Source of the DNA: Streptomyces sp. NBC_00878
GTDB lineage: Bacteria; Actinomycetota; Actinomycetes; Streptomycetales; Streptomycetaceae
NCBI RefSeq assembly: GCF_026341515.1
Contig: NZ_JAPEOK010000001.1
Coordinates: 7,316,001-7,380,000 of the forward strand
Direction of reading: 5' to 3'
DNA length: 64,000 nucleotides
This document shows, piece by piece, positions 13,734 to 48,365 of the stretch. Every line of letters begins with the position of its first letter. Positions within the stretch are counted from its first letter, which is position 1. The notes under the pieces are model-generated. The model was not told the DNA's origin. It ran no database searches and saw only the letters and a program-made list of their open reading frames with translations. A program made the translations under genes and the position numbers.

Positions 13734-14480
13734 ATGAGTCTGTTCCGCGACGACGGCATCGTGCTGCGCACCCAGAAGCTGGGTGAGGCGGACCGGATCA
13801 TTACCCTGCTCACTCGCGGTCACGGGCGCGTACGCGCTGTCGCCCGGGGTGTCCGGCGGACCAAGTCCAAGTTCGGGGCGCGGCTCGAACCCTTCTCCCA
13901 CGTCGACGTGCAGTTCTTCGCGCGGGGGAGCGAGCTGATCGGGCGCGGGCTGCCGCTCTGCACACAGAGCGAGACGATCGCTCCGTACGGTGGCGGGATC
14001 GTCGCCGACTACGCGCGGTACACCGCCGGGACGGCCATGCTGGAGACCGCCGAGCGGTTCACCGATCACGAGGGCGAGCCGGCCGTGCAGCAGTATCTGC
14101 TGCTGGTCGGCGGGCTGCGCACGCTCGCCCAGGGCGAGCACGAGCCGCATCTGATCCTCGACGCCTTTCTCCTACGCTCCCTCGCCGTGAACGGCTACGC
14201 GCCGAGCTTCGGCGACTGTGCGAAATGCGGCATGGCCGGACCGAATCGGTTCTTCTCGGTCGCCGCGGGGGGTTCGGTCTGCGTCGACTGCCGGGTGCCC
14301 GGCAGCGTCGTACCCTCGGCGGGGGCCCTCGAACTGCTCGGCGCGCTGCTGACGGGAGACTGGGCGACCGCGGACGCGTGCGAGCCGCGGTATGTCAGGG
14401 AGGGCAGCGGTCTGGTGTCGGCCTACCTGCACTGGCACCTGGAGCGCGGACTGCGCTCGCTGCGTTACGTAGAGAAGTGA
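13734..14480 (+). CDS. recO: DNA repair protein RecO
   Basis: 248 residues. The N-terminal OB fold reads LFRDDGIVLRTQKLGEADRI and VRAVARGVRRTKSKFGARLE; the C-terminal zinc site has the two cysteine pairs CAKCG and CVDC at about residues 162-183. RecO acts with RecF and RecR to load RecA on gapped DNA and anneals single strands. It is followed after 66 bases by uppS, the standard actinobacterial order. The last codons are part of a 10-bp repeat series in which the stop codon itself is repeated. Confidence 0.97.
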   Translation: MSLFRDDGIVLRTQKLGEADRIITLLTRGHGRVRAVARGVRRTKSKFGARLEPFSHVDVQFFARGSELIGRGLPLCTQSETIAPYGGGIVADYARYTAGTAMLETAERFTDHEGEPAVQQYLLLVGGLRTLAQGEHEPHLILDAFLLRSLAVNGYAPSFGDCAKCGMAGPNRFFSVAAGGSVCVDCRVPGSVVPSAGALELLGALLTGDWATADACEPRYVREGSGLVSAYLHWHLERGLRSLRYVEK

Positions 14481-14510
14481 CAAGAAGTAAGAAGAAGTAA
14501 GAAGAAGCAA
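14471..14510 (+). repeat. Four 10-bp repeats carrying the recO stop codon
   Basis: Consecutive decamers AGAGAAGTGA, CAAGAAGTAA, GAAGAAGTAA and GAAGAAGCAA. The first ends in the recO TGA stop (14478-14480), the second and third end in TAA, and the fourth in CAA. The array fills part of the recO-uppS gap. Confidence 0.9.
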
Positions 14511-14546
14511 GCGACCGGGCAGAGATCAGAGGGAGACGAGAAGCAG

Positions 14547-15395
14547 ATGGTGGTACGCGGGATTCTGGGGCGCCAGCGCCGCGAGTACAAGACGCCGGAG
14601 CCGCACCCGTCCGGCGCCCGCTCGCCCAAGCTCCCCGGCGAGCTGATCCCGAACCACGTGGCGTGCGTGATGGACGGGAACGGCCGCTGGGCCAAGGAGC
14701 GCGGTCTCCCGCGCACCGAGGGGCACCGGGTCGGCGAGGGCGTCGTCATGGACGTCCTCAAGGGCTGCCTGGAGCTGGGCGTCAAGAACCTCTCGCTGTA
14801 CGCCTTCTCGACGGAGAACTGGAAGCGGTCGCCCGAGGAGGTCCGCTTCCTGATGAACTTCAACAAGGACGTCATCCGGCGCCGCCGCGATGAGATGGAC
14901 GACCTCGGCATCCGGATCCGCTGGGTCGGCCGCATGCCCAAGCTGTGGAAGTCCGTCGTCCAGGAACTCCAGATCGCCCAGGAGCAGACACAGAAGAACG
15001 ACGCGCTGACCCTGTACTTCTGCGTCAACTACGGCGGTCGCGCCGAACTCGCCGACGCCGCGAAGGCGTTGGCCGCCGACGTCGCCGCCGGGAAGCTCGA
15101 CCCCGCCAGGGTCACCGAGAAGACCATCCAGAAGTACCTCTACTACCCGGACATGCCGGACGTGGACCTGTTCCTGCGCCCGAGCGGCGAGCAGCGCACG
15201 TCCAACTACCTGATCTGGCAGTCCAGTTACGCGGAGATGGTCTTCCAGGACGTCCTGTGGCCCGACTTCGACCGCCGTGACCTGTGGCGTGCGTGTGTCG
15301 AGTACGCCTCCCGCGACCGCCGCTTCGGCGGAGCGGTCCCGAACGAGCAACTGCTGGAGATGGAACGGGACATGAAGGGCAACACCGAGGTCTGA
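14547..15395 (+). CDS. uppS: Isoprenyl transferase (undecaprenyl diphosphate synthase type)
   Basis: 282 residues. The cis-prenyltransferase signature VMDGNGRWAKERG (catalytic Asp43, Arg47, Trp48), the FSTENWKRSPEEV motif and the C-terminal DLFLRPSGEQRTSNYLIWQS are all present. The enzyme condenses isopentenyl diphosphate units in the cis configuration to make the polyprenyl carrier lipid for cell wall synthesis. The first 30 residues (RRREYKTPEPHPSG) are an actinobacterial extension. A long hairpin follows the gene at 15418-15453. Confidence 0.97.
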   Translation: MVVRGILGRQRREYKTPEPHPSGARSPKLPGELIPNHVACVMDGNGRWAKERGLPRTEGHRVGEGVVMDVLKGCLELGVKNLSLYAFSTENWKRSPEEVRFLMNFNKDVIRRRRDEMDDLGIRIRWVGRMPKLWKSVVQELQIAQEQTQKNDALTLYFCVNYGGRAELADAAKALAADVAAGKLDPARVTEKTIQKYLYYPDMPDVDLFLRPSGEQRTSNYLIWQSSYAEMVFQDVLWPDFDRRDLWRACVEYASRDRRFGGAVPNEQLLEMERDMKGNTEV

Positions 15396-15417
15396 GGGCA
15401 GCCCGTCCGAGGCAGCA

Positions 15418-15453: not shown

Positions 15454-15468
15454 CAGTACCGGGAGGGA

Positions 15469-18213: not shown

Positions 18214-18231
18214 AAAACGACCCGCAGACCC

Positions 18232-24162: not shown

Positions 24163-24223
24163 GACTTCTCCTGTGAATCAGTGCATGTGGTGGGTTAGCT
24201 GGTGTTGTCGTCGGGTTGTTCAC

Positions 24224-24304
24224 GCGCGGTCGAGGAGCTGCTCATGCGCGGTCGAGGAGCTGCTCATGCGCGGTCGAGGAGCTGCTCATGCGCGGTCGAG
24301 GAAC
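24224..24304 (-). repeat. 22-bp tandem repeat spanning the alpha/beta hydrolase stop
   Basis: The unit GCGCGGTCGAGGAGCTGCTCAT occurs three times perfectly (24224-24245, 24246-24267, 24268-24289) and a partial fourth copy (24290-24304) is the 3' end of the hydrolase coding sequence. Read on the coding strand each copy repeats the last codons CTC GAC CGC GCA and the TGA stop, so the gene end is copied three more times downstream. Confidence 0.92.
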
Positions 24305-25164
24305 TCCGTGACGTCACCCGCGAACTCCTCGTGGTGCTGGAAGAGGAAGCCGTGTGCCGCGTCCGGGTAGATCTTGATCTCCGCGTCGGGGATGAGCCCG
24401 GCGAGCAGGTGGGAGTAGCGGGGCAGGACCATCGGGTCGCTGTCGCCGTTCGCGACGAACACGGGTGCCTGGATCGCGCTCACCCGCTCCAGGAGCGCGA
24501 TGTCGGGGATGCCCCAGGCGGTGATCGCGTCGTACTGCGCCTGGCGCGTCTGCCAGCTGGTGGGTGCGTCGAACTCGGCCCGGGTGAACATGCGTTGCAT
24601 GGCCTTCTCGCCGGTGGACCGGCTCTCGGCCGAGCGGGTGTAGAAGACGTCGAGCACGAGTGACGGGACGACCTCGGGCTCGCCCACCGCGTCGATGACC
24701 CACTTCGCCCACCCGTGCATACCGGGGGCGCCCTGGGGTGCTGCCGAGGCGAGCACGAGGCGCCGTACCAGCGAGGGCCGGATCAGCGCGATCTCCTGGG
24801 CCACGAAGGAGCCCAGGGAGAAGCCGAGGATGTCGGCCCGCGCCAGCTCCAGGGCGTCGAGGAAGGCGATGGCGTCCAGCGCCATCTGCGCCACCGTGCT
24901 GGGCGTGGTGCCGCTGGATCCGCCGACGCCGGTGTTGTCGAAGGCGATGACGCGCCGGCCCTGGGCCAGGGCATCGGCCAGAGCGGGATCCCAGAAGTCG
25001 AGGTTGCCCCGGAAGTGCATGAGCAGCACCAGCGGCACCCCGCCCTGGCTGCCCCCGCTGCCCTCGCTGCCCCCGCTGCCCTCGCCGATCTCGCGGTACG
25101 CGTACTCGATGCCGTTGCCGGCGGACACCGTCTTGACGGGTGCCTCCGCGTAGAGCTGTGTCAT
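24286..25164 (-). CDS. Alpha/beta hydrolase
   Basis: 292 residues. Fold landmarks: LVLLMHFRGNLDFWD with the oxyanion region, FDNTGVGGSS, nucleophile elbow ADILGFSLGSFVAQ (Ser in G-F-S-L-G), a late Asp in FVANGDSDPMV, and catalytic His in YPDAAHGFLFQH. The pattern fits haloperoxidase-like or hydroxynitrile-type esterases of small substrates. A GSGGSEGSGGSQGG linker, encoded by 18-bp repeats, interrupts the N-terminal strands. Divergent from a TetR regulator with two matching operators between them, so it is likely repressed by that TetR. The coding end is copied downstream in a 22-bp array. Confidence 0.9.
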   Translation of the reverse strand: MTQLYAEAPVKTVSAGNGIEYAYREIGEGSGGSEGSGGSQGGVPLVLLMHFRGNLDFWDPALADALAQGRRVIAFDNTGVGGSSGTTPSTVAQMALDAIAFLDALELARADILGFSLGSFVAQEIALIRPSLVRRLVLASAAPQGAPGMHGWAKWVIDAVGEPEVVPSLVLDVFYTRSAESRSTGEKAMQRMFTRAEFDAPTSWQTRQAQYDAITAWGIPDIALLERVSAIQAPVFVANGDSDPMVLPRYSHLLAGLIPDAEIKIYPDAAHGFLFQHHEEFAGDVTEFLDRA

Positions 25165-30253: not shown

Positions 30254-31366
30254 ATGACGACCATGGCCGAGGAGACCGCGACAGCAGTACGGGAGACGGC
30301 GACAGCGGTTCGGGAGACGGCGACAGCGGTTCGGGAGACGGTGGTGTCGGAGGCGGGGGTACCGGAGACGGCCGTACGGGAGGACGGGGCCACCGGCGTA
30401 CATGGGGCCACCGGCGTACATGGGGCCACCGGCGTACATGGGGCCACCGGTGTGCACGGGGCCACCGGCGAGCGGACGCCGGGGGCGGAGAGCCAGACCT
30501 CGCCGGAGCCGGAGAGCCTGACCTCGCGGGAGTCCGACATCCGGCGGCACGAACTCGCCGCCTTCCTTCGGCACCGTCGCGAGCACCTCACCCCCGAGCA
30601 GGTGGGCCTGCCCCGCGGCCGGCGCCGGCGCACGCCTGGACTGCGCCGGGAAGAGGTCGCGCACCTCTCCTCGGTGGGCGTCACCTGGTACACGTGGCTC
30701 GAACAGGCCCGGGACATCCAGGTCTCCGTCCAGGTCCTCGACGCCCTCGCCCGCACGCTGATGCTCGACTCGAACGAGCGCGCCCACCTCTTCCAGCTCG
30801 CCGGTGCCGTCGACCCCACCCCGGCCTCGCGCTGCGCGACGATCACTCCGGCGCTGTTGCAGATGCTGGAGCAACTGGAGCCGCTCCCGGCCTGCATCCA
30901 GAACAGCCGGTACGACATCCTCGCGTTCAACCGCACGTACGGCCGTCTGCTCTGCGACCTCGACGAGGTGCCGGCCGAGGACCGCAACTGCATGGTCCTC
31001 ATCACGACGAACGAGCAGTGGCGTTCGTCGATCGTGCTGCTCGGCGAGACGATGCGGCTGATGGCCGCCAAGTTCCGCGGGTCGATGGCCGGGCATCTCG
31101 CCGACCCCGCCTGGAAGATGCTGCTCAAGCGGCTGCGCGCGGAGTCGGAGGAGTTCCGCGAGGTCTGGGAGCGGCACGAGGTGGTCGGCTCGCGCAACAA
31201 GACCAAGATCTTCGACAACCGGTACGTGGGGCGGGTGAGCCTGGTCCACACGGACCTGTGGCTCGGCCCGGCCGAGGGGCCGCGCATGGTCACGTACGTG
31301 CCCGCCGACGACGAGTCGCGCGAGCGGCTGGAGAAGCTCCTTGCGATCGCTGTGGAGCGTGGGTGA
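30254..31366 (+). CDS. XRE regulator with MmyB-like ligand domain and N-terminal repeats
   Basis: 370 residues. Residues 7-27 are three ETATAVR heptads and about 45-74 are five GATGVH-type hexads, so the first 90 residues are low-complexity. The XRE domain follows (LAAFLRHRREHLTPEQVGLP, RRRTPGLRREEVAHLSSVGV, TWYTWLEQARDI). The C-terminal MmyB-like domain, a PAS-like small-molecule pocket, runs from ALLQMLEQLEPLPACIQNSR to LVHTDLWLGPAEGPRMVTYV. Proteins of this type usually control an adjacent divergent transporter or oxidoreductase, here the MFS pump. The 3' end is part of an 8-bp repeat. Confidence 0.9.
   Translation: MTTMAEETATAVRETATAVRETATAVRETVVSEAGVPETAVREDGATGVHGATGVHGATGVHGATGVHGATGERTPGAESQTSPEPESLTSRESDIRRHELAAFLRHRREHLTPEQVGLPRGRRRRTPGLRREEVAHLSSVGVTWYTWLEQARDIQVSVQVLDALARTLMLDSNERAHLFQLAGAVDPTPASRCATITPALLQMLEQLEPLPACIQNSRYDILAFNRTYGRLLCDLDEVPAEDRNCMVLITTNEQWRSSIVLLGETMRLMAAKFRGSMAGHLADPAWKMLLKRLRAESEEFREVWERHEVVGSRNKTKIFDNRYVGRVSLVHTDLWLGPAEGPRMVTYVPADDESRERLEKLLAIAVERG
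30272..30334 (+). repeat. Three 21-bp in-frame repeats (ETATAVR)
   Basis: Units at 30272-30292, 30293-30313 and 30314-30334, of the form GAGAC(C/G)GCGACAGC(A/G)GT. Each codes for ETATAVR; a truncated fourth unit (ETV) follows. Confidence 0.88.
30386..30475 (+). repeat. Five 18-bp in-frame repeats (GATGVH)
   Basis: GGGGCCACCGGCGTACAT is perfect at 30386-30403, 30404-30421 and 30422-30439. A fourth copy (30440-30457) has two changes and a fifth (30458-30475) diverges at its end. Each codes for GATGVH within the N-terminus of the XRE regulator. Confidence 0.92.
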
Positions 31367-31388
31367 GTGGGTGAGTGGGTGAGTGGGT
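31361..31388 (+). repeat. 8-bp repeats containing the XRE gene stop
   Basis: GGGTGAGT is repeated at 31361-31368, 31369-31376 and 31377-31384 with a partial fourth. The first copy contains the TGA stop (31364-31366). The same 8-bp period appears at the end of the convergent glycosyltransferase gene. Confidence 0.85.
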
Positions 31389-31412
31389 TCGAGGAGGTCG
31401 GTCGCTGATCGG

Positions 31413-31484
31413 CTCACGGACTCACGGGCTCACGGACTCACGGGCTCACGGGCTCACGGGCTCACGGGCTCACGGGCTCACGGG
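31413..31484 (-). repeat. Nine 8-bp repeats containing the glycosyltransferase stop
   Basis: CTCACGG(G/A) is repeated nine times without interruption (31413-31484). On the minus strand it reads CCCGTGAG; the last codons PVSP and the TGA stop (31470-31472) of the glycosyltransferase lie inside it. Because eight is not a multiple of three, copy-number change upstream of the stop would alter the last few residues. Confidence 0.92.
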
Positions 31485-33035
31485 CCTGGAGCAGGCAGCG
31501 TCGTCGCGGACGTAGACGGTGATACGCGCCCCGGTGACACGCGTTGTTCCGCACTCTCGGAAATAGCGCTTCAAGGTCGTCGTTTTCGCCTCGTCCCGCG
31601 GGTTCGTTTCCGAGTGCGCGCCCTCGGGATCGCGGACCGCGACGATCCGGCCGAATGTCGGAATGCGTGCAGATATGTCGTGGGCGGGAAGCTCGATTCC
31701 GGCGAGCGTGTTCGAGGAAGCGGGGTCCTGCGCCAGGGCCAGATCCGTCAGGAAACGCGTGTCTTCGGGGGTGGCTTCCGTCCAGACTCGGTGGCGGCCG
31801 GAGAGAAAGAGCAGTCCGTCGCCGGGACGACCCGCATTCCGTACGGCGTTGCCGATGGCGATGACGTCATCGTGCCGACTCTCGGGAGTCCTCAGGTAAA
31901 GGCTCGGTGGGAGGAGTGCGGTCAGTACCGCGAGGGCCGCGATCCACGAAGTCCGGGAGGACGGCTGCCGTCGGGAGAAATGATCGATCCCGGCGCCCAG
32001 CAGCAAGGCGAAGCCGATGGTGCCGTAGAGCACGTACCGGTCGACGAAAAGGGGCTTGACCGGTGAGAAGAGGAGCAGCAGGAGCCCGGGAAGTACGAGA
32101 ATCGGCAGGGCCAGGGCGGGCAATGGTATTGGTCCCCTGACCTTCAGGGGATATCGGGCACAGCCGATGCCCACGACGGCCATCGCCAGGAACCCCAGAA
32201 ACTGCACCGGATCGGGCCAGGTGATCCAGGACACCTGTCCCGACTGCCCCGAACTGCGGATGATCAGCGGCGACAGCCCGGCCACGACGCACGCGGCGGT
32301 CACGCTCCACGCTCTCAGCACCGGGCGTGGAACGCCGGAGACGAGCAACGTGACGCCGTGCGCGGCGAGGGCGAGGACGGCGAACTCATGGAGCAGCCCG
32401 GCGATCAGCAGGGTGGAGCCATAGGCCGTCCATTGCCATTGCCATTGCCATTGGCATTGCCACCGTCTGTGCTGCGGGACGCGCGTGACGAGTACGACGA
32501 GCGCATAGGTCGCCCAGGTGACGAGGGCACACACCATGGCGTAGGAACGGCCTTCTTGCGTGTACCGCTGGACCTGGGGAATCAGGGGAAATACCAGTCC
32601 GGCCAGGAGTCCGGCACGAGGGCCCGCGAGGCGTAGCCCCAAAAGGCCGACGCCTGCCGCCGCCGCGGACATCGCCAGCACCGACGGCAGTCGCAAGGTC
32701 AGCAGACCGCCGCCGAAAAGGCCGTAGAGCTCGTGCATCACGGCGTAGTAGAAGGCGTGGACCAGATCGACTTCCTGGGTGGTACGCCATATCCGGGACA
32801 GATCGCGGTGCGCGAGCTGATAGGTGACGGACTCGTCGCCCCACATGCTGTTCTGCCTGCGGATTCCCCAGAGTCCAAGAGCGAGCGTCAATATCATGGG
32901 CGCGATCGCGACACATGCCTTGATGCGGAATGGGGAGAGGCCGCCGGAGAAGACGCCTGAGAAGCCGCCGAAGAAGTCGGCGAACGAGGCGGTCTTTTCC
33001 GGCTTCGGTGCTTGTTGACGGACCGTACTGGGCAT
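31470..33035 (-). CDS. Polytopic membrane glycosyltransferase-like protein (GT39/ArnT-like)
   Basis: 521 residues with 10-12 hydrophobic segments. The first loop carries WGDESVTYQLAHRDLSRIWR, the acidic DES/DE motif characteristic of polyprenyl-phosphate-sugar transferases of the GT-C fold, and the second a LVHAFYYAVMHELYGLFGGG segment. The extracytoplasmic C-terminal domain begins near RTPESRHDDVIAIGN. It likely transfers a sugar from a polyprenyl-phosphate donor to a cell-envelope acceptor. A QCQWQWQWQW tract, encoded by a 6-bp microsatellite near 32432-32462, lies in a loop. The C-terminus runs into an 8-bp repeat array. Confidence 0.8.
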   Translation of the reverse strand: MPSTVRQQAPKPEKTASFADFFGGFSGVFSGGLSPFRIKACVAIAPMILTLALGLWGIRRQNSMWGDESVTYQLAHRDLSRIWRTTQEVDLVHAFYYAVMHELYGLFGGGLLTLRLPSVLAMSAAAAGVGLLGLRLAGPRAGLLAGLVFPLIPQVQRYTQEGRSYAMVCALVTWATYALVVLVTRVPQHRRWQCQWQWQWQWTAYGSTLLIAGLLHEFAVLALAAHGVTLLVSGVPRPVLRAWSVTAACVVAGLSPLIIRSSGQSGQVSWITWPDPVQFLGFLAMAVVGIGCARYPLKVRGPIPLPALALPILVLPGLLLLLFSPVKPLFVDRYVLYGTIGFALLLGAGIDHFSRRQPSSRTSWIAALAVLTALLPPSLYLRTPESRHDDVIAIGNAVRNAGRPGDGLLFLSGRHRVWTEATPEDTRFLTDLALAQDPASSNTLAGIELPAHDISARIPTFGRIVAVRDPEGAHSETNPRDEAKTTTLKRYFRECGTTRVTGARITVYVRDDAACSRPVSP

Positions 33036-36545: not shown

Positions 36546-37051
36546 GGTCACGTGGTTGTTCTCCTTCGTGGGCGGGACGGCCGTGGTCGGCGTCGGCCTG
36601 GGTGGAGTCACCGCGTGGCAGAACTGTGATGAGTCACGTCGAAATGGCGGACAAGCTGCTGATCAAGCCAACGGGGTGGGCCAGGCCGACGCCGACGTCC
36701 AGCAGACATCTCGGGGGCACGACAAGCTCTGACGAGCCGTCAGTTACCTTGTGAGTCATGCCGGAACGTCGGCGTCGATCCTGACAGCAGCCCAACCCGG
36801 GCCGCAGCTCTACTCTCACAGTTACCTTCTAGATGGCCCCGATCTTGGGGCTCCCGGCCTTCTGGCCCGGCATGACTTTTGCCCCCTGTCGACCATGACC
36901 CGGGGGGTGGTGTCACCGGGTCGGGAGGCGCCGGTAGATCGCTGATAGGGGCAGGAGCGCCGGTCCGCCGGCAACGCTCTTCGTAACGTGGTTGCCGGAT
37001 GTCGGCGCCGTGCCTTGGCCGGGAAGACAAGACCCTCCCAGGAGGAGTGAA
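36546..37051. other. Gene-free stretch between the two IS110-type transposases
   Basis: No convincing gene. It must contain the upstream ends of both transposase elements. The decamer CAGTTACCTT is directly repeated at 36741-36750 and 36818-36827 and could mark an element junction. A ribosome-binding site GGAGGAG precedes the second transposase. Composition is a little less GC-rich than the neighbouring genes. Confidence 0.5.
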
Positions 37052-38257
37052 GTGATCGACATCCGTGACGTGGCCGTCTTCCTCGGCCTCGACGTCGGCA
37101 AGGGCGAGCACCACGCCACCGGCCTCATGCCGGACGGCAGGAGCGTTGTCGACAAGCCGCTGCCGAACAGCGAGCCGAAGATGCGGGCCATGCTCGACAA
37201 GCTCACGGCCAAGTACGGCCGGGTCCTGGTCGTCGTGGACCAGCCCGCCTCGATCGGTGCTCTGCCACTGGCCGTAGCCCGCGACGCGGGCTGCGAGGTG
37301 GCGTATCTGCCGGGCCTGACGATGCGGCGGATCGCGGACCTCTATCCCGGTGAGGGCAAGACCGACGCCCGCGACGCGGCGATCATCGCGGACGCCGCCC
37401 GCACCATGCCCCACACGCTCCGCTCGATCGAGCTGACGGACGAGACCATCGCCGAACTCCACATGATCGTCGGGTTCGACGACGACCTCGCGGGCGAGGT
37501 CACCAGGGTCGCGAACCGGCTCCGCGGCCTGCTCACCCAGATCCACCCGCACCTCGAACGGGTCCTGGGGCCACGCATCCAGCACCCGGCCGTGCTCACG
37601 CTGCTGGAACAGTTCGGCTCGCCCAAGGCGATCCGCAAGGCCGGACGACGGCGCCTGATCACGCTGCTGCGGCCGAAGGCGCCCAGGATGGCCGAGCGGC
37701 TGGTCGAGGACATCTTCACCGCACTCGACGAGCAGACCGTCGTCGTCACGGGGACCGACGCGGCCGCGGTGATCGTGCCCAAGCTCGCGAAGAACCTGGC
37801 CAGCCTGCTCGACCAGCGCAAGGAACTGGCCTCGGACATCGAGGAGTTGCTCAAGTCGCACCCTCTTTCCGAGCTCCTGACGTCGATGCCGGGGATAGGC
37901 GTCAGGACCGGAGCCAGGATCCTCATCGACGTCGGTGACGGCACCGCCTTCCCGACCGCAGGCCACCTCGCCGCCTATGCCGGGCTCGCTCCGGTGACCA
38001 GGCGGTCGGGGTCCTCGATCCGCGGCGAGAGCCCGTCCCGCAGAGGCAACAAGCACCTGAAACGGGCCTTCTTCCTCGCCGCGTTCGCCTCGCTGTCCGA
38101 CCCGGCCTCCCGGGCCTACTACGAGCGGAAGAAGGCCGAGGGCAAGCGGCACAAGCAGGCCCTGATGTGTCTCGCACGCCGCCGCGTCGACGTGCTCTTC
38201 GCGATGCTCCGCGACGGGACGTTCTTCGAACCTCAAGCCGTCCCCCAAACCGCCTGA
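37052..38257 (+). CDS. IS110-family transposase, second type
   Basis: 401 residues from a GTG at 37052 after GGAGGAG. It is only distantly similar to the first transposase. DEDD-type residues lie in FLGLDVGKGEHHATG, VVVDQPASIGALPL (Asp in place of the common Glu) and GEGKTDARDAAIIADAAR. The C-terminal domain has LTSMPGIGVRTGARILIDVG and YAGLAPVTRRSGSSIRGE with the catalytic-type Ser. The gene is intact and points toward the IS607-type element. Confidence 0.93.
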   Translation: MIDIRDVAVFLGLDVGKGEHHATGLMPDGRSVVDKPLPNSEPKMRAMLDKLTAKYGRVLVVVDQPASIGALPLAVARDAGCEVAYLPGLTMRRIADLYPGEGKTDARDAAIIADAARTMPHTLRSIELTDETIAELHMIVGFDDDLAGEVTRVANRLRGLLTQIHPHLERVLGPRIQHPAVLTLLEQFGSPKAIRKAGRRRLITLLRPKAPRMAERLVEDIFTALDEQTVVVTGTDAAAVIVPKLAKNLASLLDQRKELASDIEELLKSHPLSELLTSMPGIGVRTGARILIDVGDGTAFPTAGHLAAYAGLAPVTRRSGSSIRGESPSRRGNKHLKRAFFLAAFASLSDPASRAYYERKKAEGKRHKQALMCLARRRVDVLFAMLRDGTFFEPQAVPQTA

Positions 38258-38350
38258 AACATCACCAATCAACCGACCCGCCCCTTGACGAAAGAGATAG
38301 GGGCACCCCCCCACACACACGCACACTGCGCGTTGTTCAGACGACCGTTC

Positions 38351-38620
38351 CTAAACAGTGTCCAGGAGTGAGTCTTGGACCCACGTCCCGGAACTGCGCG
38401 CATCCCAAACGGTGTTGGATGCGCTGGTCGCCCGCGTTCTTGTTCCCTTCGTCCGGGGACGTGCATCGCGTGCACGTTCCGTGACGGGGTGGCGAGGTTC
38501 CTCGCGCCCTCGGGTACCACGGCCGGCCTGGATGGTCCGATGCCCAGCACCATCACTCTGGTGATGCTGGGGCGGTGCCGTCCGTCGCCGGATCGGGTGC
38601 CCGAGGGCGCGTCTGCCAAT
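38351..38620 (-). ncRNA. Candidate omega-RNA (TnpB guide RNA) over the tnpB 3' end
   Basis: Downstream of the last RuvC motif of tnpB the sequence is strongly structured: GCGCATCC/GGATGCGC (38398-38424), GCGAGG-TT-CCTCGC (38492-38505), GTGCA/TGCAC (38461-38475), and CCCAG plus CATCAC with GTGATG plus CTGGG around TCTG (38543-38571). TnpB guide RNAs are known to overlap the tnpB 3' end and extend through the element's right end into flanking DNA, which supplies the guide. The boundaries given are approximate. The structure is seen; the RNA is inferred. Confidence 0.5.
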
Positions 38621-39991
38621 CGCCACCGAAGCGGCGTCATGGCGAGTCATGTTGCGAGTCTTGCTGGTGAGGGGCTTGCGCCAGTGCTGGTCGCCCCACA
38701 TGGAGGTGTATGCCGGGTCCACGGCGACGATGGCGAGGCCGTGTTCGGCGGCCATGGACACGATGCGGGCCTTGAGCTTGCCGGTGGGCATGCCCGAGAT
38801 CAGCTGCCGGAACTGCTTCCTGCGGCCGTGCTTCTCGCGGGTCTTCTCGGCGGCGAAGTCCAGGTTCTCGATACCGATCGCGGTTGCGCCGGTCTGCTTG
38901 GTCCAGTGCAGGAGCCGGGTGAGGGCGTGCCGGATCTGGGCGTCGCGGTGGTCGGCCGACCCGGTCAGGTCGTAGGAGAAGCGGCGCGGGTCGCCGACCG
39001 GGTTGCCGTGCGGGTCGAGCCGGTAGGCGGCGAAGTGGTCGGCATTGGTGTCCACGCCAACCATGCCGCCTGCGCGGGCCGCATCCAGCGGCACGGTCTT
39101 GACCGCCGGCCTGGTCCACGACGCGGTGAGGTACCAGCGGCCCCGCTCAATGTCGAGGTGGATGCGGTAGGCGACAGCCCGGTTGCCGTCGATGCGATCC
39201 CGCCACTCCTGCCCACGGTGTGTGAACGCGACCTTGGAACAGAGCACGTAGCGGCCATGCCGGGCGTTCGCGTGGTGCGCGAGCGGGGCGGGCAGCTTGA
39301 TGCTGACCTCGCCGTCCGGCGTGACGCGGATCGTCTCGTTACCGAACCGCTTCCCCGGCTCTCCATCGGCGGCGAGGAACCAGCGTTCGGCCTCCCAGCG
39401 CTGCCGCCATCGGGCTTGGGTCAGATGGGCTGCTTGCAGGTTGTGCCGGTTCTTCAGCAGGCGTCGGCCGCCGCGCACCACACGGACACGGCCGGCAGAC
39501 CAGTCAGCGCGGGCTGTTTCGAGCCGGTGTTCCAGGGTGGCCAGTCGGCGGGACTTGTTGAACCACTCGCCCTTGCTGCGGTAGCCGCCCGGAGCCTGTT
39601 TCGAGCCGCGTTCGCCGATCGGCAGCGACAAGCGGTGCCGCAGCGTGCGGATACCGGCATCAAGGCTGTGGATGTGCGCGAGCAGGCACCTGCGGGCCAA
39701 GCCGTACTGGTCGTGGGTGGACTTGGTGATCGTCCCGGCGATGCGGGAGGAGGACTGCTCGGTCAGCTCTCGCTTGCGGGCCGCCCACGCGTCGTTGTCG
39801 TGGTCGTGTCCGGACTTGCAGCGTGCCTTGAGATCAGCCGAGGCCAGGCGGCCTTGGTGCTCGCCCACCAGGCGAAGAATCGTCTCGTCTTCGGGCATGA
39901 GGTGCTTGAGCCGGTCGCGTATCGCCACACCGGACGGCCCCAGGGCGACGAACGGGGCGTCGATGGTGCGGAGCTGCTTCCTGTCAGTCAT
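38351..39991 (-). CDS. tnpB: TnpB-type RNA-guided endonuclease homologue
   Basis: About 546 residues from the ATG at 39989-39991, eight bases inside tnpA. RuvC-like catalytic positions: Asp in VGVDTNADHFAAYRL, Glu in ATAIGIENLDFAAEKT, Asp in TRHDAASVAIGRRALGH. The zinc-ribbon cysteines normally found between the last two are absent; the segment reads VDPAYTSMWGDQHWRKPL. About 85 residues of Arg/Thr/Pro-rich sequence follow the last motif; these are translated from the structured candidate guide-RNA region and may not be a folded domain. In known relatives the protein cuts DNA under RNA guidance and helps retain the element. Catalytic residues look intact. Confidence 0.85.
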   Translation of the reverse strand: MTDRKQLRTIDAPFVALGPSGVAIRDRLKHLMPEDETILRLVGEHQGRLASADLKARCKSGHDHDNDAWAARKRELTEQSSSRIAGTITKSTHDQYGLARRCLLAHIHSLDAGIRTLRHRLSLPIGERGSKQAPGGYRSKGEWFNKSRRLATLEHRLETARADWSAGRVRVVRGGRRLLKNRHNLQAAHLTQARWRQRWEAERWFLAADGEPGKRFGNETIRVTPDGEVSIKLPAPLAHHANARHGRYVLCSKVAFTHRGQEWRDRIDGNRAVAYRIHLDIERGRWYLTASWTRPAVKTVPLDAARAGGMVGVDTNADHFAAYRLDPHGNPVGDPRRFSYDLTGSADHRDAQIRHALTRLLHWTKQTGATAIGIENLDFAAEKTREKHGRRKQFRQLISGMPTGKLKARIVSMAAEHGLAIVAVDPAYTSMWGDQHWRKPLTSKTRNMTRHDAASVAIGRRALGHPIRRRTAPPQHHQSDGAGHRTIQAGRGTRGREEPRHPVTERARDARPRTKGTRTRATSASNTVWDARSSGTWVQDSLLDTV

Positions 39992-40562
39992 CGGCCGCAG
40001 CCGCCTCAAGGGCCTTCCTGGCGCGGTTCTTCGCCGAGCGGCGGCCGTACAGGCGGGCGCAGAACGAGGTCAGTACTTCCACCATGTCGCGCACCAGGTC
40101 GTCTTCGACCTCGCCGTCATCGAGGACGACGAGTCGGCGGCCGGTGGCAGACAGAGCGGATTCGACGAGTTCGACGTTCATACGGCCGAGGCGGTCTTTG
40201 TGCTCCACCACCACAGTGGTCACTGCCGGATCAGCCAGCAAGCGACGTGCCTTCGTACGGGCACCGTTCATGCCAGAGGCGATCTCCGACTCCACGCGCA
40301 CTACGCGATGCCCGGCCTTCGCGGCCCACTCCGACAAGCGCGCGGTCTGCCGTTCCAAGTCGGCCTTCTGGTCGTGCGAGGAGACGCGGGCATACAGACC
40401 CACACCTCCGGTCACCGAGGATGAGGTGTTCGCGTCGATGTTCACCAGGATCGTGCGCGGCCCCACCCGCTCCGCGGGGACCGGCAACGTGCCCTCACGG
40501 AACCAGCGGTACGCAGTACGCGGGGCGATCCCCTGCGCACGCGCCCATTCCGTCAGGTTCAT
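39984..40562 (-). CDS. tnpA: IS607-family serine recombinase TnpA
   Basis: 192 residues from the ATG at 40560-40562. An N-terminal MerR-like helix-turn-helix (LTEWARAQGIAPRTAYRWFR, EGTLPVPAERVGPRTI) is fused to a resolvase catalytic domain (GLYARVSSHDQKADLERQTA with the nucleophile Ser, VVVEHKDRLGRMNVELVESA). The short C-terminus FCARLYGRRSAKNRARKALE is typical. It moves the element through a serine-recombinase reaction. It overlaps tnpB by eight bases. Confidence 0.93.
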   Translation of the reverse strand: MNLTEWARAQGIAPRTAYRWFREGTLPVPAERVGPRTILVNIDANTSSSVTGGVGLYARVSSHDQKADLERQTARLSEWAAKAGHRVVRVESEIASGMNGARTKARRLLADPAVTTVVVEHKDRLGRMNVELVESALSATGRRLVVLDDGEVEDDLVRDMVEVLTSFCARLYGRRSAKNRARKALEAAAADD

Positions 40563-43410: not shown

Positions 43411-43421
43411 GGCAGCATGCC

Positions 43422-45356
43422 TCACGCACCCCCCACGGCGGTGAGCAACGCAAGTGGCGCCGCGGCGGACCGCGATTCGCGCACGCACGCATGCGGATAC
43501 GGCACCGGCTCCGCATGCGTGTCCCGGCCATACCCCGCAAGAACCTCCGGCAGCCGATGCCCGGCCGCCGTCGCCGCATCCACCAGTGCGTGGGCCACCG
43601 TACGGGCCTCGTCATGGAGCCCGTACCGCGCAAGGCCCAACGTGATCAGCGCGTTGTCGTGGGGCCACACCGAACCCCGGTGGTAGGACAGCGGATGGTA
43701 AGCGGGCTGGCCCGAGGCGACCGTCCGTACGCCCCAGCCGGAGAAGAAGTCCGGCTCCAGCAACCGCCGCCCCACCAGCTCCCCGTACTCCTTGTCCAGT
43801 AACCCGGACCACAACAAGTGCCCCGCGTCGGACGCGAGCGCGTCGACGTGGTTGCCGTCGCCGTCGAGGGCGAGCGCCGGGAAGGAGTGGTCCGCCATCC
43901 AGAAGTCCCGCTGGAAACGGTCACGCAGATCCCCCGCGGCCTGCTCCAGCAACGCCGCGTACACCTCGTCGTCCCATACCGTCCGGGCCAGATGCGCGGT
44001 CCGGCGCAGCGCGTCGTACGCGTACCCCTGCGCGCCCGCGGCCATCACCGGGCCGGTCGGCCGGCTGCCGTCGCCGGAGCAGATGGCGCCGGGGGAGTCC
44101 TTCCAGTTCTGGTTGGCGAGGCCGCCCTCGTCCGCGCGGTATACGAGGTATCCGCGTGAGGTCAGCCCGCCGTGGTCCAGCATCCAGCCGATCGCCGCCC
44201 GGGCGTTGGGCTCCAGGCGGCGGGCCAGCGCCACGTCCCCGGTCTGCTCCACGTACGCGCCGAGGAGGACCAGGAAGAGCGGGGTCGCGTCGACCGAGCC
44301 GTAGTAACGCCCGTACGGCACCTGCCCGAAGTGGGCCAGTTCCCCGTGCCGCATCTCGTGCACGATCTTGCCGGGCTGGGCCACCGCGCCCACGCCGACC
44401 TCGGTCGCCTGGGCCGCGGCGAGCGCGGGCAGGGTGGCGGCGGCCAGCTGGGGACGGTAGGGGAGCGCGAAGAGGGAGGTGAGGAGGGCGTCGCGGCCCA
44501 ACAGGGTCAGGAACCACGGGACTCCGGCCGCCGGGACGCGAAGTTCCTCTCCGTCGGGGCCCGTTGCGGGCACCTGGAGCACGGCCAGGTCGGACAGGCC
44601 CCGCGCACAGGCCGCGGCCAGCTCGGGCCAGCCCGTCGGGAAGGGCACGCCCTCCGCGAACTCCCCTTCCAGCGCGAGGAGTCGGGCGTTGGCTGCGGCC
44701 GGAGTGGGGGGCACCTCCGGGTGCGGCATACCGTGCGGGCGCGCCGCCACCCGGAGGGCCAGCTCGGCCGATGCGTGCGGCTGGAGTTCGAGCGTCCAGA
44801 CGAGGCGGCGCGCGCCCGTGCCGGTCTCCTCCACGCCGTCCGGCGCGGGTTCGGAGGTCACGGTCGTACAGGACCGCCACTCGCCGCGCTGGTAGGCGAA
44901 CTCCACACCGTCGTCGAGGACTTGACGGGAGCGGACCACACCGATCTTCGTGTACGTCCGGTGGTCGGAGCGCAGCTCGAACTGGTCCGTGAAGTCGGCG
45001 TCCGCGGTGACCGCGATCCGGACCGTCGTCGGCGCCGAGCGGTTGCTGGTGACGCGCAGCGACTCGACGAACGCGCCGTCCGCCACGGCCTGTTCACGGA
45101 AGATCGTGTACGCGGGCGGCTCCTGCCGGCCACCGCGCGGTACGAGTACACAGCGGGCCGTGTCGCCGTCCGCGACCGGTGTCAGTGCCTCGGGCACCGC
45201 TCCGTCGACGGTCAGCTGCCAGCGGCTCAGGTGCCGGGCGTCACGCACGAACAGCCCGTGGGGCGAACTGGCGCCGCGTACTCCGTTGATGTCCCCGCCG
45301 TCGCCCACGGCCGCGAACGTCCCACCGTGCACGAGCAGATGATGCCGGTCCGTCAT
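43422..45356 (-). CDS. Glycogen-debranching-type (alpha,alpha)6-barrel hydrolase
   Basis: 644 residues from the ATG at 45354-45356, which overlaps the previous gene's stop by four bases. The N-terminal domain matches the glycogen-debranching N-terminal family (SSPHGLFVRDARHLSRWQLT, TIFREQAVADGAFVESLRVT). The catalytic (alpha,alpha)6 barrel contains VPWFLTLLGRDALLTSLFAL, GKIVHEMRHGELAHFGQVPY, GLANQNWKDSPGAI and YHRGSVWPHDNALITLGLAR. It belongs with amylo-alpha-1,6-glucosidase-like enzymes; the substrate is probably an alpha-glucan-type oligosaccharide. No signal peptide. It works with the coupled hydrolase encoded upstream and both are divergent from the ROK regulator. Confidence 0.85.
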   Translation of the reverse strand: MTDRHHLLVHGGTFAAVGDGGDINGVRGASSPHGLFVRDARHLSRWQLTVDGAVPEALTPVADGDTARCVLVPRGGRQEPPAYTIFREQAVADGAFVESLRVTSNRSAPTTVRIAVTADADFTDQFELRSDHRTYTKIGVVRSRQVLDDGVEFAYQRGEWRSCTTVTSEPAPDGVEETGTGARRLVWTLELQPHASAELALRVAARPHGMPHPEVPPTPAAANARLLALEGEFAEGVPFPTGWPELAAACARGLSDLAVLQVPATGPDGEELRVPAAGVPWFLTLLGRDALLTSLFALPYRPQLAAATLPALAAAQATEVGVGAVAQPGKIVHEMRHGELAHFGQVPYGRYYGSVDATPLFLVLLGAYVEQTGDVALARRLEPNARAAIGWMLDHGGLTSRGYLVYRADEGGLANQNWKDSPGAICSGDGSRPTGPVMAAGAQGYAYDALRRTAHLARTVWDDEVYAALLEQAAGDLRDRFQRDFWMADHSFPALALDGDGNHVDALASDAGHLLWSGLLDKEYGELVGRRLLEPDFFSGWGVRTVASGQPAYHPLSYHRGSVWPHDNALITLGLARYGLHDEARTVAHALVDAATAAGHRLPEVLAGYGRDTHAEPVPYPHACVRESRSAAAPLALLTAVGGA

Positions 45357-46939
45357 CGCCGGTCCTCTCCCTTGGCACCCATGCCGAACTCTTCCCTTGC
45401 GCCGTGCGCCGTGTCGGACAGCTCGTGTGCGCTTCCGTGCGTCGCGTCGGACAGCTCGTATGCGCTGCCGTGCGCCGTGTCGGACGGCTCGTGCAGCAGA
45501 TCGAGCGTCAGTGCGGCGGTCCAGCTGAAACCGAGCGCTCCGCACGCCTCGCCGGTGTACGGATCCACGTACTCCGCGAACCCGGACGTGTCCGCGGTGT
45601 CCAGCAGCGCGCTCCGCAGCGACCGCGCGCGTGCGTGCTCTCCGTGCAGCCTGAGCCCGCGCTCCACCAGCCAGTTGGTGTTGAACCAGGCCGGACCGCG
45701 CCAGTACCGGTGCGGATCGAAGGCGTGCCCGGTCAGGTCGTAGCTCGGGACGAGGCGGGTCGTGTCGCCGAGCCCGAAGTGCGGCCCGCGCAGGGTCCGT
45801 ACGAGCGTGGCGGCCGTGTCGCGGGGGAGCGCGGGGAGCAGCAGCGGGACGAGGCCGGAGACGCCGCGCTCGGGGATCAGCTCGTCCGTGCGCACGTCCC
45901 GGCAGAAGAACATGCCCTCGGCCGGGTCCCACAGCCGGTCGACGAGCGCCGCGGTCAGGCGCTCCGCGCGCGCGTGCCGGGCCGTGCCCGTCGCGCCCAG
46001 CTCCCGCGCGATCCGCGCCAGCGCGTGCTCGGAGGCGATCAGAAGCGCGTTGAAGGCAGGGTCCTCCACCGCGAAGCCCGCAGTGCTGTCGGTGCCGTCG
46101 GCGTACCCGCCGTCCCGGTAGTCCGTCGCCAGCCGCACGTACCGTCCGTAGTCCAGGTCCGTCGGCCGGTCCTCCGCGGCGCCGTGGTCGAGGTCAGCGC
46201 GGCGGAAGGAGCGGGCCGGGGCGGGCGTCACGCGGGAGAGCGGGGCGTCCCAGCTCGGCGCGTTGTCCATGCCCTGCTCCCACGGGTGGACCACCGAGGC
46301 GAGGCCCCCGCCGCCCAGGTCCCGGCGGTGCAGCAGATAGCGGTGCCAGGCCGCCAGGCGCGGGTAGATCCGGGACAGGAAGGACCGCGCCCGGGACAGA
46401 CCGGGGTCGGAGACGTGTACCAGCCAGGCGGCGAGCGCGTGCACCGGGGGCTGCACGATGCCCGACGTCTGTACGGTGCGCGGGGCGCCCGCGGCGTCGC
46501 CCGCGGTCGAGGAGCGCCAGAAGTCGGGGCTCGGGAAGTACGCGTCGAGCGGGACGGAGGGGTTGAACACGATGTGCGGGATCCGGCCGTCGCCCCACTG
46601 CGCGTCGAGCAGCGTCTCCAGCTCGACCTGCGCCCGCAGCGGCGACAGATGGCGCAGACCGATCGCGATGAACGCGGAGTCCCAGGACCACTGGTGGGGG
46701 TACAGACCGTGCGAGGGCACCGTCGACGAACCGGTCCAGTTGCCCTGCAGCACCTCGGCAGCCCTGAGATGCAGCGATCCCGCCGGGAGACGCAGCGATC
46801 CGTCGCATCGGGCCGGATCGTATACGGCCACCCCGGAAGGGTCGATCTCACCATGGCCGGAAAACGGCGGTGAGGTCGCGGTGCGTACGGGATCCACGTT
46901 CCCCGTGCGACGGGCGGTGAGCTGGGTTGTGCGGTCCAC
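45353..46939 (-). CDS. Trehalase/GH63-like (alpha,alpha)6-barrel glycosidase
   Basis: 528 residues. YPHQWSWDSAFIAIGLRHLS, DAQWGDGRIPHIVFNP, the catalytic-acid region VVHPWEQGMDNAPSWDAPLS, YRGPAWFNTNWLVERGLRLH (seen as RYWRGPAWFNTNWL) and FAEYVDPYTGEACGALGFSW are the landmarks of the GH37/GH63/mannosylglycerate-hydrolase superfamily. No signal peptide. The C-terminus ends in three 11-residue repeats (SDTAHGSAYEL-like). The stop overlaps the start of the debranching-type gene (ATGA). Probable joint role in cytoplasmic breakdown of an oligosaccharide under ROK control. Confidence 0.83.
   Translation of the reverse strand: MDRTTQLTARRTGNVDPVRTATSPPFSGHGEIDPSGVAVYDPARCDGSLRLPAGSLHLRAAEVLQGNWTGSSTVPSHGLYPHQWSWDSAFIAIGLRHLSPLRAQVELETLLDAQWGDGRIPHIVFNPSVPLDAYFPSPDFWRSSTAGDAAGAPRTVQTSGIVQPPVHALAAWLVHVSDPGLSRARSFLSRIYPRLAAWHRYLLHRRDLGGGGLASVVHPWEQGMDNAPSWDAPLSRVTPAPARSFRRADLDHGAAEDRPTDLDYGRYVRLATDYRDGGYADGTDSTAGFAVEDPAFNALLIASEHALARIARELGATGTARHARAERLTAALVDRLWDPAEGMFFCRDVRTDELIPERGVSGLVPLLLPALPRDTAATLVRTLRGPHFGLGDTTRLVPSYDLTGHAFDPHRYWRGPAWFNTNWLVERGLRLHGEHARARSLRSALLDTADTSGFAEYVDPYTGEACGALGFSWTAALTLDLLHEPSDTAHGSAYELSDATHGSAHELSDTAHGAREEFGMGAKGEDRR
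45404..45496 (-). repeat. 33-bp in-frame repeats at the glycosidase C-terminus
   Basis: Units at 45404-45436, 45437-45469 and a partial 45470-45496 share GTGCG(C/T)CG(T/C)GTCGGAC. They encode SDTAHGSAYEL, SDATHGSAHEL and SDTAHGAREEF, just ahead of the stop codon. Confidence 0.85.
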
Positions 46940-47084
46940 TCAGGTCTCCCCGAAGACATGCGGCCGACCAGTTCGGCAGTAGCTACCGTAGGGTTACGTC
47001 TATTTAACACGCAAAACTCAATATGTAATGCAGAGTTGGTGAGCGCAAGGGGTCCGCGTGACCGGAACCACAGGGAGGAGCGGG

Positions 47085-48311
47085 ATGGCGACAAGGGCCG
47101 GGAGGACCGGGCGAACCGGGAGCCAGGCGAGCTCCGGCGACCTGCTGGAGCTGGTCCGCAGCGGGCGCGCGACGACGCGCGGGGCCTTGCAGCAGGTCAC
47201 TGGGCTGTCGCGGGCCACCGTCGGACAGCGCCTCGACCGCCTCTTCCGGGCCGGCTGGCTGCGTGAGGGCGCCGCGGGCCCGGTGGACTCGCCGCTCGGC
47301 GGCCGTCCCTCGGTCCGCCTGGAGTTCGACGACGCCCACGCCGTCGTCCTCGCCGCCGACCTCGACACCCGGCACGCCCGCGCCGCCGTGCTGTCCCTGA
47401 CCGGCGAGCTGCTGGCCGAGCACACGGGAGCACTGCTGATCGAGGAGGGCCCGGACGCGGTCCTCGGCGAGCTGGGCCGCTGGTTCGCGGAGCTGCTTGA
47501 GAAAGCCGGGCACCGGGCGGACGAGGTGTGCGGCATCGGGCTCGCCGTGCCGGGGCCCGTCGACAGCGACACCGGCCGGGTCGTCCAGCCGCCGATCATG
47601 CCCGGCTGGGACGGCTACGACATAAGGGGCCGCCTCACCCGCGCCTTCGCCGAGCACACCGGCGCCGAGGCCGTCCCGGTGCTCGTCGACAACGACGCCA
47701 ACCTCATGGCGTACGGGGAACAGCGCACGGGCCACCCCGACTGCTCGGCCTTCGTACTGGTGAAGGTCTCCACCGGTATCGGGGCCGGTGTGGTCGTCGG
47801 CGGCTCGATCTACCGGGGCATCGACGGCGGCGCCGGGGACATCGGGCACATCCGGGTCCCGGAGGGCGCCGACGCGCTGTGCAGATGCGGGTCGTACGGG
47901 TGCCTCGCCGCCGTCGCGAGCGGTGGCGCTGTCGCGCGCAGGCTTGCGGAGAAGGGCGTTCCGGCGGCGTCGGGCTCAGATGTGCGCGATCTGCTGGCCT
48001 CCGGGCACCCCGGCGCCGCCGCGCTCGCCCGCGAGGCCGGGCGGCACGTCGGTGACGTACTGGCGACCGTGGTGACGCTGCTCAACCCCGGCGTCCTGAT
48101 GATCGCCGGGGACCTGGCCGGAACACCGTTCCTCACGGGCGTCCGCGAACTGCTCTACCAGCGGGCCCTGCCCCGCTCCACCGCCCGCCTGGACGTGGTC
48201 ACGTCACGGCTCGGCGAGCGGGCGGGCCTGGTCGGGGCGGGTGCCCTGGTCGTGGAGCATCTGTACGCGCCCGAACGGGTCGAGGAGCGGCTGCGCGCCA
48301 TGGGCGTGTGA
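47085..48311 (+). CDS. ROK-family transcriptional repressor
   Basis: About 408 residues from ATG 47085 behind an ideal AGGGAGGAG; an upstream GTG at 47058 is in frame. N-terminal winged helix SSGDLLELVRSGRATTRGAL, LQQVTGLSRATVGQRLDRLF. The ROK sugar-kinase-like domain has VLAADLDTRHARAAVLSLTG, VCGIGLAVPGPVDSDTG, VLVDNDANLMAYGE, GTGIGAG-type STGIGAGVVVGGSIYRG and the zinc motif CRCGSYGCLAAVASG. It is probably a sugar-responsive repressor of the two divergent glycosidase genes. The intervening region around 46990-47040 is unusually AT-rich (CTATTTAACACGCAAAACTC), a likely promoter/operator. The gene end is copied downstream as a 24-bp repeat. Confidence 0.92.
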   Translation: MATRAGRTGRTGSQASSGDLLELVRSGRATTRGALQQVTGLSRATVGQRLDRLFRAGWLREGAAGPVDSPLGGRPSVRLEFDDAHAVVLAADLDTRHARAAVLSLTGELLAEHTGALLIEEGPDAVLGELGRWFAELLEKAGHRADEVCGIGLAVPGPVDSDTGRVVQPPIMPGWDGYDIRGRLTRAFAEHTGAEAVPVLVDNDANLMAYGEQRTGHPDCSAFVLVKVSTGIGAGVVVGGSIYRGIDGGAGDIGHIRVPEGADALCRCGSYGCLAAVASGGAVARRLAEKGVPAASGSDVRDLLASGHPGAAALAREAGRHVGDVLATVVTLLNPGVLMIAGDLAGTPFLTGVRELLYQRALPRSTARLDVVTSRLGERAGLVGAGALVVEHLYAPERVEERLRAMGV

Positions 48312-48365
48312 TGGTCACGCGCCATGAGTGTGTGATGGTCACGCGCCATGGGTGTGTGACGGTCA
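48294..48365 (+). repeat. Three 24-bp repeats carrying the ROK gene stop
   Basis: Units at 48294-48317, 48318-48341 and 48342-48365 share CGCGCCATG(G/A)G(C/T)GTGTGA. The first holds the last codons (RAMGV) and the TGA stop at 48309-48311; the next two repeat the same codons and stop. Two or three substitutions separate the copies. Confidence 0.93.

What the first reader, a model, noticed from the sequence alone, without database searches (positions are those of the whole stretch)
14471..48365. Stop codons of several unrelated genes sit inside short tandem repeats that copy the gene end downstream
At least six genes in 64 kb end in a tandem array that repeats their last codons with the stop: recO (10 bp x4), alpha/beta hydrolase (22 bp x3.7), XRE/MmyB regulator (8 bp x3.5), glycosyltransferase (8 bp x9), ROK regulator (24 bp x3) and the GntR/phosphatase junction (24-bp period x2). 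ppdK shows a degenerate version. The units differ in sequence and length, so this is a process and not one element. Possible causes are local replication slippage tolerated only beyond the stop, or selection for back-up stops. I know of no named system with this behaviour.
Basis: partly seen in the sequence, partly recalled or inferred. Interest (0 to 1): 0.72.

Follow-up and report, generated by a model that had tools for sequence, protein, structure and literature searches.

The report
Gene-tail tandem repeats, tolerated not targeted
Several genes in this Streptomyces-type window do end inside short tandem repeats, but the repeats look like ordinary local duplications that persist because the protein still ends at its old stop codon and the DNA behind genes is almost free to change.

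Summary
The GntR/phosphatase "array" is one 14-base word repeated once at 24-base spacing, outside the stated range; ppdK shows nothing convincing. In a contiguous 864-kb block 36 arrays overlap a stop (680 called genes); four other genomes give 2.7-5.2 per 100 genes; 300 kb of E. coli gives 0 for 259.

The stop codon is not the target. Coverage by frame-breaking arrays rises from almost none in coding DNA to a plateau behind the stop, without a peak at the stop. Stop-spanning arrays are as frequent per permitted site as arrays starting 0-50 bp downstream (ratios 0.81-1.24, all intervals include 1). In the closest relative found, 10 of 10 alignable orthologs stop at the same codon and 1 of 10 has an array. 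Downstream copies do not preserve the stop triplet better than other triplets.

Best reading: recurrent local tandem duplication, silent when the first unit includes the stop, gained and lost quickly in weakly constrained 3' flanks. Known kind; low interest.

The parts
13734..14480 (+). recO; ends TGA at 14478-14480
   Evidence: Pfam RecO_N/RecO_C
14473..14511 (+). 10-bp array x3.9, first unit carries the recO stop
   Evidence: TRF score 57; no array at the ortholog end in G140, G121, G013
24286..25164 (-). alpha/beta hydrolase gene
   Evidence: Pfam Abhydrolase_1
24220..24302 (-). 22-bp array x3.8 over the hydrolase stop; last copy has GTGA instead of ATGA
   Evidence: TRF score 159
30254..31366 (+). 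MmyB-like XRE regulator
   Evidence: Pfam MLTR_LBD, HTH_31
31359..31388 (+). 8-bp array x3.8 over the XRE stop
   Evidence: TRF score 60; by eye not present behind the first stop after the match in 17 relatives printed, of 80 loci fetched
31470..33035 (-).
31411..31485 (-). 8-bp array x9.4 over the stop of that ORF; two units lie inside the frame
   Evidence: TRF score 136
47085..48311 (+). ROK-family gene
   Evidence: Pfam ROK
48294..48367 (+). 24-bp array x3.1 over the ROK stop; G140 has two diverged copies by eye
   Evidence: TRF score 127
56431..56865 (-).
   Evidence: Pfam Excalibur
56415..56441 (-). 12-bp array x2.2 over that stop; single copy in G140 and G121
617..653 (+). weak 24-base-spaced pair of a 14-base word at the GntR/phosphatase overlap; spacing is a multiple of three and the second copy lies in the next gene

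Best explanation
These are ordinary minisatellite-like tandem duplications. Local duplication of roughly 8-40 bp happens recurrently in this lineage, probably by replication slippage between short direct repeats (inferred). Frame-breaking arrays are nearly absent inside genes (shown), presumably because selection removes them (inferred). A duplication whose first unit includes the stop leaves the protein unchanged, because translation still ends at the first copy, so the permitted zone begins one unit before the stop and runs through the 3' flank. That flank is weakly constrained in these bacteria (shown by comparison with relatives), so arrays arise, expand, decay and vanish quickly. The apparent attachment to stop codons is the edge of a tolerance zone, not a mechanism aimed at stops.
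For: Coverage by frame-breaking arrays (TRF 45 or more) is at most 0.5% in coding DNA until about 20 bp before the stop, rises through the stop and stays at 5-8% from 10 to 150 bp downstream, without a peak at the stop. Local test over 946 stops with at least 110 bp behind them, five genomes: stop-spanning arrays per permitted site divided by arrays starting 0-50 bp downstream is 1.04, 0.90, 0.81 (all periods, scores 40/50/60) and 1.24, 1.19, 1.22 (frame-breaking); all bootstrap intervals include 1. Relocation in convergent regions, frame-breaking: 23 seen/22.8 expected, 20/18.6, 17/15.7; all periods 35/39.4, 29/33.2, 24/28.9 (scores 40, 50, 60). At score 50, 53 of 62 stop-overlapping arrays reach into the gene by no more than one unit plus 2 bases. 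Orthologs: G140 keeps the stop at the same codon in 10 of 10 alignable array genes (168 of 186 genes without array) and has an array in 1 of 10; G121 7 of 9 and 0 of 9; G013 5 of 6 and 1 of 6. Identity to G140 is 0.52-0.56 in the first 15 bp after stops against 0.83-0.86 in the 15 bp before starts; convergent regions 0.425 (shuffled 0.337), divergent 0.758 (shuffled 0.453). Perfect two-copy duplications with units of 20 bp or more: 12, mean 8.3 bp of extra homology against 0.81 for random duplications.
Against: Relocation over all contexts leaves an excess of frame-breaking stop-overlapping arrays: 50 seen/35.9 expected, 41/29.5, 35/24.2 (scores 40, 50, 60; 1, 4 and 0 of 300 simulations reach it), smaller for all periods (78/66.6, 62/55.2, 51/46.6). 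It comes nearly all from co-directional regions (21/11.2 at score 50; 16/9.2 after barring 60 bp before starts). I ascribe it to constraint before starts, because the local co-directional ratio of frame-breaking arrays, 1.49-1.71, has intervals of 0.6-3.2, but a modest real excess is not excluded. 9 of 62 arrays reach deeper into the gene than one unit plus 2 bases, so the silent-first-unit rule does not cover them. The slippage step rests on 12 duplications, several with extra homology near a full unit, which later expansion would also give. Only 13 of 299 simple indels of 6 bp or more between G000 and G140 look like tandem duplications (shuffled control 4), and 0 of 96 in convergent regions, so tandem duplication is at most a small visible part of 3'-flank turnover. 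In one search, with another matching rule, 1 of 8 arrays is seen at the ortholog stop in G140 and 1 of 8 in G121.
Confidence: 0.86

Rival explanations
1. Selection for back-up stop codons: repeating the gene end with its stop protects against readthrough or frameshift, so arrays are kept.
For: Arrays do place further stops downstream; 68 of 98 downstream copies still read as some stop. Periods that are multiples of three, which keep the frame, are somewhat over a third: 32 of 78.
Against: The stop triplet itself is kept in 64 of 98 copies (0.65), between the other triplets of the coding part (497 of 719, 0.69) and of the non-coding part (285 of 475, 0.60). Arrays are mostly not kept in relatives. 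Stop usage is similar with and without arrays (TGA 28 of 35 and 453 of 645).
Confidence: 0.03
2. A stop-linked mutational hotspot: termination of translation or transcription, or head-on replication at convergent ends, stimulates duplication near gene ends.
For: Frame-breaking array density is highest in convergent regions: 1.2 per kb against 0.66 co-directional and 0.34 divergent in G000 at score 50, and convergent is highest in each of the five genomes. Relocation excess at stops in co-directional regions.
Against: Much of that order is expected from constraint alone, since 5' flanks are far more conserved than 3' flanks. Nothing significant distinguishes the stop from the next 50 bp, and the plateau runs to about 150 bp.
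Confidence: 0.07
3. The arrays are functional 3' elements such as terminators or RNA-stability elements.
For: Some lie between convergent genes where terminators are expected (general knowledge).
Against: The 60 nt after the stop fold no better in array genes (mean -20.3 kcal/mol, n=32) than in others (-22.2, n=403; Mann-Whitney p=0.31). Units differ and are mostly absent in relatives.
Confidence: 0.03
4. Assembly or sequencing artefact.
For: Tandem repeats are prone to assembly error (general knowledge).
Against: Copies have diverged by point changes (for example the last hydrolase copy), and similar frequencies occur in five genomes.
Confidence: 0.01

Closest known systems
Tandem repeats of Borg elements (PMC9879509; passages seen)
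   Same: Arise independently, turn over fast, flanked by partial repeats, units inside genes divisible by three; [quoted passage not shown]
   Different: Borg units are perfect and A-rich on an archaeal element; here units are mostly G+C-rich, partly diverged and chromosomal.
TAACTGA direct repeats of Beggiatoaceae (PMC4679880; passages seen)
   Same: Repeats that contain stops overlap the ends of upstream genes, because they can lie only at the end of a frame.
   Different: One fixed heptamer with a proposed regulatory role towards start codons; here every unit differs.
De novo tandem duplications at short direct repeats in beta-lactamase genes (PMC4169377; passages seen)
   Same: Duplication bounded by short direct repeats, ascribed to replication slippage for part of the cases.
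   Different: Selected changes inside a gene; here apparently near-neutral at gene ends.
Mycobacterial interspersed repetitive units, MIRU (review PMC12548453, passage seen)
   Same: Repeat units at gene junctions in an actinobacterium with little effect on the neighbouring gene.
   Different: MIRUs are described there as mobile and inserted at start codons; here no shared element is seen.
Variable repeats between rnc and fpg1 of M. tuberculosis (PMC2734929; passages seen)
   Same: Lineage-specific tandem repeats behind a gene, absent in related species.
   Different: They begin 40 bp behind the stop and were linked to expression of the next gene.

Membership tests
Locally born minisatellites (tandem duplications) | Head-to-tail copies of a unit more frequent than in shuffled sequence | tested here: met
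Locally born minisatellites (tandem duplications) | Unit derived from local sequence; relatives hold a single copy or no array | tested here: met
   array at the ortholog stop in 1 of 10 (G140), 0 of 9 (G121), 1 of 6 (G013); by another rule 1 of 8 and 1 of 8. ROK in G140 shows two diverged copies by eye, counted as none by TRF
Locally born minisatellites (tandem duplications) | Short direct repeats at the duplication edges (slippage) | tested here: inconclusive
   12 cases, mean 8.3 bp extra homology against 0.81; small sample, partial third copies not separable
Locally born minisatellites (tandem duplications) | Copy number varies between strains of one species | not testable with these tools
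   One genome per species is held
MIRU-type mobile repeat element | One shared sequence family inserted at many sites | tested here: not met
   Units of the 35 G000 cases printed differ in sequence and length (read by eye)
Back-up stop system | Stop triplet conserved above the rest of the unit in downstream copies | tested here: not met
   64 of 98 against 497 of 719 and 285 of 475

The most novel reading that the evidence does not exclude
Where a gene is followed by a co-directional neighbour, duplications spanning the stop arise or persist more often than duplications just behind it, as if translation termination marked a site of duplication or stop-bearing copies gave a small benefit.
Probability: 0.08. 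Interest if true: 0.55.

Novelty: new member of a known kind. Interest (0 to 1): 0.22.

Why it matters
Mainly as a caution: a striking pattern at stop codons can follow from tolerance geometry alone, because a duplication that includes the stop is silent for the protein. It also shows how little sequence is held behind genes in Streptomyces-type genomes, so such arrays could serve as fast strain markers and should not be read as regulatory by default. The high array density goes with a genome in which no MutS_V match and one NucS match were found; NucS repair is reported unable to correct indels (PMC8228993, abstract and passages). A causal link is untested here.

Tried and rejected
Back-up stops, better folding behind stops and a shared mobile element (by eye) were tested and rejected. 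A first chance value for microhomology printed (0.39) was too low, and the score threshold favoured it for short units, so repeats it with units of 20 bp or more and a sampled null. Attributing 3'-flank turnover to tandem duplication failed: 13 of 299 simple indels (G140, shuffled control 4) and 7 of 304 (G121, control 4) look like tandem duplications. Counting multiples of three in downstream arrays (172 of 313) was not used because genes missed by my caller inflate it.

Rows left out before counts: relocation tests used periods 6-60 and left out arrays running into a start (13 at score 50 over five genomes); the local test left out stops with less than 110 bp behind them and arrays reaching more than one unit plus 2 bases into the gene, and used the mean period of frame-breaking arrays throughout; ortholog counts left out ends that did not align within 15 bases.

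Print: eight searches listed no paper on this pattern in Streptomyces by title or start of abstract; most listed papers were not opened, and only the held library was covered.

Limits: genes were called by a codon-usage script of mine, in E. coli too, although annotation was shown; the G000 block is 864 kb of 11.1 Mb; relatives are 400 kb each; E. coli is six 50-kb stretches.
Full report
WHAT IS THERE. TRF and direct reading confirm five arrays that run over a gene's stop codon: recO, an alpha/beta hydrolase, an MmyB-like XRE regulator, the - strand ORF at 31470-33035, and a ROK protein. A sixth weaker one lies at 56415-56441. The GntR/phosphatase junction holds one 14-base word repeated at 24-base spacing at 617-653, outside the finding's range, and ppdK shows no convincing array. 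In the window 6 arrays of TRF score 40 or more overlap a stop of 56 called genes; rotating the 50 arrays gives 1.9 on average, and 25 of 2000 rotations reach 6. The window is somewhat richer than its surroundings (binomial p = 0.07 against a rate of 36 per 680).

HOW GENERAL. The window is G000:C1:7316001-7380000 in an 11.1-Mb genome. I joined the window with 400 kb on each side and took 400 kb from each of G140, G121, G013 (same genus) and G020 (another family of the order). Arrays of score 40 or more that overlap a stop number 36 for 680 called genes in G000, 9 for 330 in G140, 12 for 332 in G121, 13 for 322 in G013 and 15 for 289 in G020; arrays over a start but no stop number 8, 4, 6, 4 and 0 in the same order. 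In 300 kb of E. coli K-12 there are 17 arrays in all and none overlaps a stop of 259 called genes. Markov-shuffled intergenic DNA yields few frame-breaking arrays (0-0.06 per kb at score 50 against 0.2-1.7 in the real regions).

IS THE STOP SPECIAL. The coverage profile of G000 says no. Arrays with frame-breaking periods (score 45 or more) cover 0-0.5% of coding positions until about 20 bp before the stop, 1-2.4% of the last 20 bp, 4.9% of the ten positions that begin at the last stop base, and 5.4-7.8% from 10 to 150 bp behind it: a ramp to a plateau. A duplication whose first unit includes the stop does not alter the protein, so the permitted zone reaches one unit into the gene; 53 of 62 stop-overlapping arrays of score 50 or more stay within one unit plus 2 bases, 9 go deeper. 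Placing arrays at random in that zone predicts the overlaps in convergent regions: 23 seen/22.8 expected, 20/18.6, 17/15.7 for frame-breaking arrays and 35/39.4, 29/33.2, 24/28.9 for all periods at scores 40, 50, 60. Pooled over contexts there is an excess of frame-breaking arrays, 50/35.9, 41/29.5, 35/24.2, reached by 1, 4 and 0 of 300 simulations. It comes nearly all from co-directional regions, 21/11.2 at score 50, or 16/9.2 when 60 bp before starts are barred. A local test that does not depend on the distant start finds stop-spanning arrays per permitted site about equal to arrays starting 0-50 bp behind the stop: ratios 0.81-1.24 over 946 stops, all intervals including 1. By context the ratios run from 0.60 (convergent, all periods) to 1.71 (co-directional, frame-breaking), again with all intervals including 1. 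A moderate co-directional excess is therefore possible and not shown.

ORIGIN. In most orthologs the gene end is kept and the array is missing. G140 is the closest relative found among 392 genus members drawn evenly from a larger group, judged at recO, with median identity 92.9% over 190 orthologous genes. In it 10 of 10 array genes with an alignable end stop at the same codon (168 of 186 genes without array) and 1 of 10 has an array there; G121 7 of 9 and 0 of 9; G013 5 of 6 and 1 of 6. With a different matching rule one search finds an array at 1 of 8 ortholog stops in G140 and 1 of 8 in G121. TRF misses diverged pairs: the G140 ROK gene shows two copies by eye, so some arrays are older than these counts suggest. 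At the XRE gene 17 relatives, of 80 loci fetched, were printed and none shows the 8-bp array behind the first stop after the match. Perfect two-copy duplications with units of 20 bp or more carry on average 8.3 bp of extra homology at the edges (12 cases) against 0.81 for random duplications, as expected for slippage between short direct repeats, though later partial expansion would look the same.

WHY 3' ENDS. Identity to G140 over the 100 bp behind stops is 0.40-0.60 in 5-bp bins (102 genes), against 0.62-0.86 before starts (126 genes); for G121 0.34-0.47 (82) against 0.59-0.83 (102). Whole convergent regions have 0.425 identity to G140 (shuffled 0.337, 24 regions), co-directional 0.701 (shuffled 0.447, 74), divergent 0.758 (shuffled 0.453, 27). 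Frame-breaking array density follows the inverse order in G000: convergent 1.20, co-directional 0.66, divergent 0.34 per kb at score 50; convergent is highest in each of the five genomes, while co-directional and divergent change places in G121. The 3' flank is where such changes survive. What rewrites it is not mainly visible tandem duplication: 13 of 299 simple indels of 6 bp or more look like one, and 0 of 96 in convergent regions.

FUNCTION TESTS. The stop triplet is kept in 64 of 98 downstream copies, against 497 of 719 and 285 of 475 for other triplets, so back-up stops do not appear to be selected. The 60 nt behind stops fold no better in 32 array genes than in 403 others.

RELATION TO KNOWN WORK. 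[quoted passage not shown] Beggiatoaceae TAACTGA repeats overlap stops for a similar permissive reason (PMC4679880, passages). De novo duplications at short direct repeats are documented (PMC4169377, passages). S. coelicolor is listed with 38 satellites, 4.2 per Mb, in a survey of prokaryotes (PMC6749651, passages). G000 has no MutS_V match and one NucS match; NucS is reported unable to correct indels (PMC8228993, abstract and passages), and in a Streptomyces its loss did not considerably affect the indel rate, 9 and 19 indels (PMC11109965, passages). Whether this matters for 8-40-bp loops is untested.

VERDICT. A real pattern with an ordinary cause: recurrent tandem duplication seen through a sharp tolerance edge at the stop codon. 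On recheck the confidence in this reading was lowered from 0.87 to 0.86 and the stop-linked rival raised slightly, because 9 of 62 arrays reach deeper than one unit and the pooled relocation excess holds at all three scores.

Noticed in passing
G000 convergent intergenic regions compared with G140: 3' flanks are close to unalignable right behind the stop although orthologous genes are about 93% identical; tandem duplications explain only a small part of the simple indels (none of 96 in convergent regions), so what rewrites these flanks is open.
   Followed up: partly
window 35466-40562: Two IS110-family transposases and a resolvase-domain gene within about 5 kb, a mobile-element-rich stretch.
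   Followed up: no
window 3134-3272: A near-perfect 15-bp array of 9.3 copies (score 257), the highest-scoring in the window, in a gap that my gene caller leaves between 3076 and 3336.
   Followed up: no
window 43422-46753: Two adjacent genes overlapping by 4 bases, both with MGH1-like glycoside hydrolase domains; the one at 45353-46753 carries a 33-bp array at 45401-45493.
   Followed up: no
G000:C1:7777027-7777172: An 8-bp array of about 18 copies behind a stop, with an array also found at the G140 ortholog: the only case shared with G140 by TRF.
   Followed up: no
G000:C1:7573335-7573365 and window 31411-31485: Arrays that reach more than one unit into the gene, so they may have changed the protein's C-terminus.
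   Followed up: no
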